Source of the DNA: Crocinitomix sp. | GTDB lineage: Bacteria > Bacteroidota > Bacteroidia > Flavobacteriales_D > Crocinitomicaceae | Length of the DNA: 34,373 bases | Assembly (NCBI GenBank): GCA_015662905.1 | Contig: DQTE01000153.1 | Span: 1-34,373 of the forward strand | Direction: 5' to 3' | Shown: piece by piece, positions 25,328 through 26,511 of the stretch | Numbering within the stretch: position 1 is the stretch's first letter | Layout: the number at the start of each line of letters is the position of its first letter | Translations under genes and position numbers: made by a program | The notes under the pieces: model-generated | What the model was told of the DNA's origin: nothing | What the model saw: the letters and a program-made list of their open reading frames with translations, nothing else | Database searches by the model: none

Positions 25328-25384
25328 TTACACTTTTTTATAGCCTTTAAACTACACAAGCAAAAACAGGTTGGTCAAAATTAT

Positions 25385-25531
25385 TTGGAAAAAAAAGAAG
25401 AAGAAATTGATGAAAACAAAATTGATGAAATGGAGTATATGGACCATAACAAAAAGAATCGTTTTGTAAACATTAAGATTATGGGAAACATAGATGATTA
25501 CAAAGTTACTTTAGAAAAAAAAACAATCTAA
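25385..25531 (+). pseudogene. ORF fragment without a good start codon
   Basis: In the permease frame, past its stop, 67 codons stay open to a TAA at 25529-25531. The frame encodes a charged peptide (LEKKEEEIDENKIDEMEYMD, then NKKNRFVNIKIMGNIDDY). The first usable starts are TTG at 25385 or ATG at about 25430. The composition looks protein-like, and the piece may be a decayed gene end, a micro-protein or chance. I recognise no family. Confidence 0.2.
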
Positions 25532-25577: not shown

Positions 25578-26159
25578 TTACTTTTTTTTGACTACCTTCT
25601 TTATAAAAGTTTGTTCACCAATTCTTAAATGAAACAGGTAAACACCATTTGGAAAAGTCATAAGCGAAATACCTTTAATGTTGTTTGTTTGTTTGATAAG
25701 TAAATTACCTTTTAAATCATAAACTTTCAACGACACAACTTTGTGTTTTGATGATATATTTACATGAGCAGTTGTGGGATTCGGATAAATACTAACGCCA
25801 TGTTCATCTGATGAGTTTTCTGACAACAATAACGTTTGATTTTTTACTAACTGCAAACTATGAGACGTACCATTTTTTAGTAAATGTACTATGTACACTC
25901 CATTAGGTAAGGTGTCTGCATTAAAGCTAACCGTTACACTTCCAGACAAAACAAAACCATTAAAATATTGTTTCAACAAATTCCCATAACTATCATAAAC
26001 TCTTAAACTAATGGTGTCGTTTATCAAACTACGTACAGTAATGTCTGTTGAAACAACAAAAGGATTTTCTGATGCACTCATTACCTCACCAAAAGTTTGT
26101 GCTTTGCTGACAACATGTATAAAACACAAGTTCAACAATATCATTAATTTTATCCTCAT
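25578..26159 (-). CDS. secreted protein made of two T9SS sorting-domain-like repeats
   Basis: The 193-aa protein has a signal peptide (about 1-20), then two related units. Unit 1 (about 32-106) contains NPFVVSTDI, LRVYDSYGNLLK and LPNGVYIVHL. Unit 2 (about 127-190) contains YPNPTT, LKVYDLKGNLLI and FPNGVYLFHL, then FIKKVVKKK. Unit 2 is a typical type A C-terminal sorting domain for export by the type IX system. Unit 1 has the same strand order, and no cargo domain lies before it. It may be a minimal surface protein or a stub of a larger adhesin. It follows the TonB-C-like gene by 10 bp, so the two are cotranscribed. Confidence 0.85.
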   Translation of the reverse strand: MRIKLMILLNLCFIHVVSKAQTFGEVMSASENPFVVSTDITVRSLINDTISLRVYDSYGNLLKQYFNGFVLSGSVTVSFNADTLPNGVYIVHLLKNGTSHSLQLVKNQTLLLSENSSDEHGVSIYPNPTTAHVNISSKHKVVSLKVYDLKGNLLIKQTNNIKGISLMTFPNGVYLFHLRIGEQTFIKKVVKKK

Positions 26160-26169
26160 ACAAAACTAC

Positions 26170-26511
26170 TTATTTGTTATCTCCCTTGTAAACCTTAATT
26201 ACAACTTCACCTCTATGAAATTGAGGAAACTGATACCCCGCTTCAAACTTTAACCTTTTTACCATATTTTTTGCCTGCATCATGGTTGGTGTACTAACAA
26301 TATTAGATTTTGCCTGATTTAACTTGCAAGAGGTTACATTTCCCTTTTCATCTACAACAATATCAAACACAAATTGTCCGTTATAATTACCCTCAAAAGC
26401 GTAATCAATTTGCTTAACTACCTTGCGTTTATCTGTAGCAATATCACCATAAATTTGAGAAAAAGACAAATTAGCTATCAGTAAGAAAAATATTATATAT
26501 GTAAATCTCAT
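26170..26511 (-). CDS. small secreted TonB C-terminal-like protein
   Basis: The 113-aa protein has a signal peptide (about 1-19, ending NLSFSQ) and then a single domain resembling the TonB C-terminal fold: FVFDIVVDEKGNVTSCKLNQ, then a helix with QAKNMVKRLKFEAG and a last strand EVVIKVYKG. There is no membrane anchor or proline-rich linker, so it cannot act as a normal energy transducer; it would be a free periplasmic or exported domain. It is the first gene of a pair with the sorting-domain protein. Confidence 0.7.
   Translation of the reverse strand: MRFTYIIFFLLIANLSFSQIYGDIATDKRKVVKQIDYAFEGNYNGQFVFDIVVDEKGNVTSCKLNQAKSNIVSTPTMMQAKNMVKRLKFEAGYQFPQFHRGEVVIKVYKGDNK

What the first reader, a model, noticed from the sequence alone, without database searches (positions are those of the whole stretch)
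25578..26159. Secreted protein composed only of two sorting-domain-like repeats
After the signal peptide the 193-aa protein contains two units with the same pattern (NP..., VYD-x(2-3)-GNLL, PNGVY-x-x-HL) and no cargo domain. A type IX sorting domain normally follows a large functional domain and is cut off. A double, cargo-free copy could be a surface plug, a decoy for the secretion or sortase machinery, or the remnant of a bigger gene.
Basis: partly seen in the sequence, partly recalled or inferred. Interest (0 to 1): 0.5.

Follow-up and report, generated by a model that had tools for sequence, protein, structure and literature searches.

The report
Small secreted protein with two sorting-type domains
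This small bacterial gene makes an exported protein built from two domains of the kind normally used as a removable export tag; the same two-domain design, without any other cargo domain, recurs in scattered related bacteria, and the front domain has probably become the cargo itself.

Summary
The 193-aa protein is a signal-peptide-like start plus two T9SS type A CTD units, each over the TIGR04183 cut-off alone. Both match solved T9SS CTDs in the AlphaFold2 model. Their likeness is not chance (0 of 1000 shuffles in each of two tests).
It is not a local accident. I collected 27 full-length double-unit genes from 23 genomes, 191-205 aa, with no other domain family matched. Close pairs show dN/dS 0.13-0.24 in both units where computable. 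Distribution is patchy, without a fixed neighbour.
The units differ in kind. Unit 2 scores like ordinary cargo CTDs of this genome. Unit 1 belongs to another CTD subtype, terminal in other proteins, better conserved here than unit 2 and carrying D48-T49, rarer in those terminal tails.
Best reading: a T9SS substrate whose cargo is itself a converted sorting domain. Unit 2 directs export and is probably removed; unit 1 (about 10 kDa) is the surface or released product. Export and function are untested. "Remnant" is not supported; "plug" and "decoy" are neither supported nor excluded.

The parts
25578..26159 (-). double-CTD gene, 193 aa
   Evidence: ORF; PF18962 and TIGR04183 with two stretches each
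26097..26159 (-). signal peptide, residues 1-21 (hydrophobic run then SKAQ; judged by eye, no predictor run)
   Evidence: sequence; low pLDDT 1-24; hydrophobic N-termini in the 27 members, by eye
25833..26090 (-). unit 1, residues 24-109: CTD-fold domain of the 'PNPF' subtype, inferred cargo
   Evidence: TIGR04183 31.1 bits alone; model matches T9SS CTDs of PorU (Z 9.7), mirolase (Z 9.5), NucA (Z 9.0); D48-T49 and K106 conserved in the family
25851..25853 (-). Q103 codon: in unit 1, the place of the nearly invariant C-terminal lysine of type A CTDs
   Evidence: K in 17 of 27 members, Q in the window
25803..25832 (-). linker, residues 110-119, inferred site of PorU cleavage
   Evidence: pLDDT below 50 at 110-117; from here to the C-terminus is 74-84 residues, within the 67-88 given for PorU-processed P. 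gingivalis CTDs (PMC11285876 passage)
25581..25802 (-). unit 2, residues 120-193: ordinary type A CTD, the inferred sorting signal
   Evidence: TIGR04183 51.2 bits alone; model matches RemZ CTD Z 9.8, rmsd 1.7 A over 70, and RemA CTD Z 9.3
25596..25598 (-). K188 codon: pairs with a lysine of solved CTDs, inferred equivalent of RemZ Lys1110
   Evidence: pairs with a lysine in 8glj_D and in NucA 8glk_D; RemZ 1110 by offset from the end of the structural alignment, model 192 to RemZ 1114; lysine role from PMC10994853 passages
26170..26511 (-). upstream neighbour, 113-aa secreted-looking protein with TonB_C-like matches below cut-off, ending 10 bp before the double-CTD gene; probable operon

Best explanation
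A small type IX secretion system (T9SS) substrate whose cargo is a converted sorting domain. Steps: (1) the signal peptide takes the protein into the periplasm (inferred from sequence); (2) unit 2, a normal type A CTD with its C-terminal lysine, is recognised by the SprA-PorV translocon and carries the protein across the outer membrane (inferred from family, fold and lysine); (3) PorU, present in the genome, cuts in the disordered linker (inferred); (4) unit 1, about 90 residues of beta-sandwich, stays on the surface linked to LPS or is released, and acts there as a small binding or structural module (inferred; ligand unknown). Shown here: the two-domain anatomy, both folds as models, recurrence of the design, purifying selection in relatives, and the difference in kind between the units.
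For: Unit 2 is like ordinary cargo tails: 39 cargo CTDs read from 37 loci of this genome score a median 50.0 bits against the unit 2 profile and 22.3 against the unit 1 profile; in jackknife, unit 2 of the 27 members scores 38.9-71.9. Unit 1 has its own identity: in 26 of 27 members it scores better by the unit 1 profile (sequences of 50% identity or more left out), unit 2 in 27 of 27 by the unit 2 profile. Unit 1 is the better conserved unit (mean unweighted column entropy 2.05 against 2.29 bits) and has marks rarer in 35 unit-1-like terminal CTDs: D48 25 of 27 against 9 of 35, T49 22 of 27 against 5 of 35, D82 18 of 27 against 3 of 35 (the 35 include one broken family copy, L148, and many were fetched because they resemble the family). 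The window keeps the lysine in unit 2 (K188) and not in unit 1 (Q103). dN/dS 0.13-0.24 in both units of close pairs where computable. PorU above cut-off in 22 of 23 genomes with the gene. Models and matches.
Against: Family-wide the lysine loss is not specific to unit 1: K in 17 of 27 against 19 of 27 in unit 2. Terminal tails of other proteins score up to 77.5 bits by the unit 1 profile, as high as the window's own unit 1 in jackknife (70.8), and members range from 30.9 to 109.3, so unit 1 may still bind T9SS parts as those tails should. Export, cleavage and anchoring were not tested. No function or ligand for unit 1. The window copy has no close relative, so selection on it was not measured. 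By Foldseek alone, generic Ig-fold chains rank above the best CTD (8glk_D, rank 23, E 7e-4), and pTM is 0.50, so the arrangement of the two units is not reliable.
Confidence: 0.58

Rival explanations
1. Both CTDs are kept and the protein sits on PorV as a T9SS accessory: a plug, a bridge between two shuttle proteins, or a surface sensor like PorA, whose CTD is reported as not removed.
For: Both units match solved CTDs; PorA, PorU and PorZ are T9SS parts with unprocessed CTDs (PMC11285876 passages); results suggest that PorV can bind PorA's CTD, and PorA affects PorXY-SigP signalling (PMC7712824 abstract and one section); unit 1 is well conserved, K106 in 26 of 27. A CTD tolerates a C-terminal His-tag extension (PMC11285876 one section).
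Against: The gene is patchy (1 of 10 and 1 of 5 genomes in two genera) and multi-copy in three genomes of the class draw, unlike a machine part. The window's unit 1 lacks the usual lysine. Unit 1 is no closer to PorU CTDs than ordinary cargo tails are (median 9.5 against 9.6 bits).
Confidence: 0.17
2. Unit 1 is only a spacer: a folded domain that unit 2 needs next to it for export, as the IgSF domain precedes the CTD in RgpB; the protein has little function of its own.
For: RgpB has an Ig-like domain, a 9-residue disordered linker and the CTD in tandem, and the authors suggest a spacer or insulator role for the IgSF domain (PMC4804311 passages); [quoted passage not shown]
Against: A mere spacer should not be better conserved than the signal, nor keep D48-T49 across the family.
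Confidence: 0.1
3. It helps export or anchor the protein of the neighbouring gene, supplying a CTD in trans.
For: A same-strand frame ends 30 bp or less upstream in 10 of 27 members, window included; 7 of these 10 neighbours pass a crude hydrophobic test for a signal peptide; G1015 has two such pairs in a row.
Against: 16 of 27 lack such a neighbour (for one more, L145, none was seen before the contig end); the neighbours differ, and in four of the ten the neighbour has its own CTD (L129, L130 by Pfam; L134 by profile; L135 by eye). No control set of gaps was computed.
Confidence: 0.07
4. A decaying remnant of a larger T9SS protein.
For: Patchy presence; one broken copy seen (L148).
Against: 27 of 27 members are of nearly the same length, dN/dS 0.13-0.24 in relatives, and no cargo-bearing version was seen in what was examined.
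Confidence: 0.03

Closest known systems
T9SS type A sorting domain (TIGR04183 / PF18962)
   Same: Both units match it; CTD fold, NP start, G-x-Y, C-terminal lysine region
   Different: Normally one copy behind a cargo domain; here two, of two subtypes, and nothing else
IgSF-CTD tandem of gingipain RgpB (PMC4804311, passages seen)
   Same: Ig-like sandwich, disordered linker, CTD
   Different: No catalytic domain; the front domain here is itself recognised by the CTD model
PorA of Porphyromonas gingivalis (PMC7712824, abstract and one section seen)
   Same: Small exported protein with an N-terminal domain and a type A CTD
   Different: PorA's N-domain is reported as similar to the FimH mannose-binding domain; unit 1 is CTD-like; no direct comparison with PorA was made
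Terminal 'YPNPFNPSTTI'-like CTD subtype of cargo proteins in other classes of the phylum
   Same: Closest sequences to unit 1 seen outside the family
   Different: There it ends the protein; here it is internal and carries D48-T49

Membership tests
T9SS type A CTD, unit 2 | score over the curated TIGR04183 cut-off (23 bits) | tested here: met
   51.2 bits alone
T9SS type A CTD, unit 2 | seven-stranded beta-sandwich like solved CTDs | tested here: met
   seven strands 123-191; RemZ CTD Z 9.8, rmsd 1.7 A, 70 aligned
T9SS type A CTD, unit 2 | C-terminal position and conserved lysine | tested here: met
   ends the protein; K188 pairs with a lysine in two solved CTDs
T9SS type A CTD, unit 2 | directs export through the T9SS | not testable with these tools
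   needs an experiment; PorU is in the genome
T9SS type A CTD, unit 1 | score over the curated TIGR04183 cut-off | tested here: met
   31.1 bits alone
T9SS type A CTD, unit 1 | CTD fold | tested here: met
   PorU CTD Z 9.7 (2.4 A, 83), mirolase CTD Z 9.5 (2.4 A, 77), NucA CTD Z 9.0 (2.4 A, 75); alpha-2-macroglobulin-family domains score as high or higher (up to Z 11.1 for unit 1 alone, 1.9 A, 85), so the fold alone is not specific. Seven strands in the model of L103; five longer strand elements in the window's model
T9SS type A CTD, unit 1 | C-terminal position and conserved lysine | tested here: not met
   internal; Q103 in the window (K in 17 of 27 members). So unit 1 is filed as a relative of the domain, not as a working signal
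PorU-type CTD, unit 1 | closer to PorU CTDs than ordinary cargo CTDs are | tested here: not met
   median 9.5 against 9.6 bits by a profile of seven PorU CTDs
RgpB-like protease | catalytic domain before the Ig-like domain and CTD | tested here: not met
   193 aa, no such domain matched
PorA | FimH-like N-terminal domain | tested here: inconclusive
   FimH not among the listed rows; PorA itself not compared

The most novel reading that the evidence does not exclude
A secretion signal turned effector: a CTD domain that lost its terminal role and was kept as a surface ligand of the T9SS itself, for instance occupying or reporting on PorV or the attachment complex, in a patchy gene family that tunes what Bacteroidia display.
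Probability: 0.15. Interest if true: 0.7.

Novelty: new variant of a known kind. Interest (0 to 1): 0.42.

Why it matters
Each unit is a known domain type, but a conserved family made only of two sorting-type domains did not come up in keyword searches of the open-licence PubMed Central library (listings, not full reading). If unit 1 is the mature product, a sorting tag has become cargo, and the protein is a minimal natural substrate (one folded domain plus one tag) for studying T9SS recognition, cleavage and anchoring. If both units bind PorV, it is a built-in probe of the shuttle.

Tried and rejected
PorU lead: unit 1 of several members matches the CTD part of the PorU model (e.g. L103 E 1.3e-8), but a profile of seven PorU CTDs scores unit 1 no better than ordinary cargo tails. 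Dropped.

Fresh internal duplication: rejected by the jackknife. The extra likeness of the window's two units (shared GNLL, PNGVY) may be convergence or recombination; not resolved.

Conserved partner gene: none seen; neighbours differ. Virus or plasmid carriage: one viral scan gave no relative; among plasmids 3 records matched, none over 80% of the query.

Cargo-bearing tandem: two large proteins matched most of the profile (G420, G752); on reading they have another region plus one CTD. In loci held one further frame had two hits, a weak partial one plus a CTD (L088).

Limits. Neighbour gaps were not compared with a control set. No signal peptide predictor was run. Whole-genome searches scored only some candidates per genome (8; 37), so genome counts are lower bounds, and the printed lists were cut. 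Start codons of members were set by me; three ranges begin one codon before or at a non-ATG start (L104, L107, L132). PorA's FimH-like fold was not among listed rows. A search for papers on Brumimicrobium and type IX secretion gave none. On re-checking I found that the 8glj chain need not be RemZ; the lysine equivalence now rests.

Full report
What is there. The ORF at 25578-26159 on the minus strand encodes 193 aa: a signal-peptide-like start, unit 1 (24-109), a short linker and unit 2 (120-193). Pfam PF18962 and NCBIfam TIGR04183, the T9SS type A sorting domain, match in two stretches each. Each unit alone passes the TIGR04183 cut-off of 23 bits: 31.1 and 51.2. The units align at 34% identity over 67 columns, and in 1000 shuffles of each unit no score reaches the observed cross-scores.

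Structure. The AlphaFold2 model from six family members has mean pLDDT 76 and pTM 0.50, with most of unit 1 and much of unit 2 above 80 and residues 110-117 below 50. With VIA-align 2, unit 2 (121-192) matches the CTD of RemZ in the T9SS translocon (Z 9.8, rmsd 1.7 A, 70 aligned) and RemA (Z 9.3, 1.9 A, 71). Unit 1 matches CTDs of PorU (Z 9.7, 2.4 A, 83), mirolase (Z 9.5, 2.4 A, 77) and NucA (Z 9.0, 2.4 A, 75). Domains of the alpha-2-macroglobulin family match unit 1 as well or better (up to Z 11.1, 1.9 A, 85), and in Foldseek generic Ig-fold chains rank above the best CTD. The fold alone is thus a common sandwich; the sequence ties it to the CTD family. A model of a second member, L103, shows seven strands in unit 1; its unit 2 matches NucA's CTD (Z 10.7, 1.9 A, 71) and its unit 1 PorU's CTD (Z 10.1, 2.8 A, 87), with alpha-2-macroglobulin-family rows again as high.

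The family. A search of 39 relatives with the protein gave two further full-length matches in short frames among those listed. A profile search of the order found such matches in 4 of 399 genomes, the window included. The named-genome collection gave 13 loci, 5 of them full-length: four MAGs and Brumimicrobium glaciale. A class search gave 11 of 395 genomes with 15 copies, all in open frames of 194-230 aa. In the order of G1095 (87 genomes), 10 full-length copies lie in 9 genomes, two of these genomes already known. In a draw of 395 genomes over the phylum only the window matched as a short two-unit protein. In two genera, 1 of 10 and 1 of 5 genomes carry it. I collected 27 full-length genes from 23 genomes, 191-205 aa long. 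TIGR04183 gives two stretches in the window and in 23 of the other 26; in L133:1465-2061, L136 and L146 only unit 2 passes. PorU is over its cut-off in 22 of the 23 genomes; in the other, an 81% complete assembly, only partial matches were seen.

Two different units. Profiles built without near relatives tell the units apart: unit 1 scores better by the unit 1 profile in 26 of 27, unit 2 by the unit 2 profile in 27 of 27. The pair is therefore older than the spread of the family. Thirty-nine cargo CTDs read from 37 loci of this genome score a median of 50.0 bits by the unit 2 profile and 22.3 by the unit 1 profile. Of 127 cargo CTD proteins in the loci held, 20 prefer the unit 1 profile. In other classes of the phylum unit-1-like domains end large proteins and score up to 77.5 bits by the unit 1 profile, so unit 1 shares descent with what look like real sorting tails. 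Here it is internal, better conserved than unit 2 (entropy 2.05 against 2.29), and marked by D48 (25 of 27; 9 of 35 in terminal tails), T49 (22; 5) and D82 (18; 3) (the 35 include one broken family copy). In unit 1 the site of the nearly invariant CTD lysine is Q103 in the window and K in 17 of 27 (15 of 27 if aligned through the profile); in unit 2 it is K188, K in 19 of 27; in own cargo tails K in 29 of 39. K188 pairs with a lysine in the solved CTDs 8glj_D and 8glk_D and, by the end of the structural alignment, with RemZ residue 1110.

Selection. For seven close pairs not including the window, dN/dS is 0.13-0.22 in unit 1 (six pairs) and 0.13-0.24 in unit 2 (five pairs); the other values are saturated, and several dS values are near or above 1. 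The signal peptide ranges from 0.04 to 0.96.

Surroundings. In the window a 113-aa secreted-looking protein gene ends 10 bp upstream. Ten of 27 members have a same-strand frame ending within 30 bp upstream, 16 do not, and for one none was seen before the contig end. The neighbours differ, and four of the ten carry their own CTD (L129, L130, L134, L135). No gene is shared by the neighbourhoods read.

Mechanism. From papers: substrates with type A CTDs are carried by PorV, and a nearly invariant C-terminal lysine contacts it (PMC10994853, passages); PorU-processed P. gingivalis CTDs span 67-88 residues (PMC11285876, passages); a His-tag extension of a CTD is tolerated while replacing its last residues is not (same paper, one section); motifs D and E matter most (PMC10202324, one section). 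Unit 2 fits a processed CTD in size, place and lysine. The most economical reading is export through unit 2, cleavage in the linker, and unit 1 as product. All three steps are inferred.

Verdict. A recurrent, selected architecture, made of known domain types in a new arrangement. The function of unit 1 is open.

Noticed in passing
window 25340-25531 (+): Open frame of 63 codons without a clear start, between the permease gene and the double-CTD gene; looks like the 3' end of a lost gene.
   Followed up: no
L133 and L137 (G1015): Two tandem pairs, each a 134-137 aa secreted-looking protein without a Pfam match followed within 11 bp by a double-CTD gene.
   Followed up: partly
L130 802-1491 and L131/L134: The CTD of the gene just upstream in L130 looks very like unit 2 of L131 and L134, suggesting exchange of CTD segments between genes (by eye).
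   Followed up: no
L103 6786-10576: A double-CTD gene lies beside genes that look like a regulator, a methylase and a restriction enzyme (by eye).
   Followed up: no
L148 (G967): A broken copy: unit 1 and unit 2 lie in different frames.
   Followed up: partly
own genome (G000), 70 PF18962 matches, 66 over cut-off: The genome encodes many T9SS substrates; only the window gene came up as a full-length double-unit match.
   Followed up: yes
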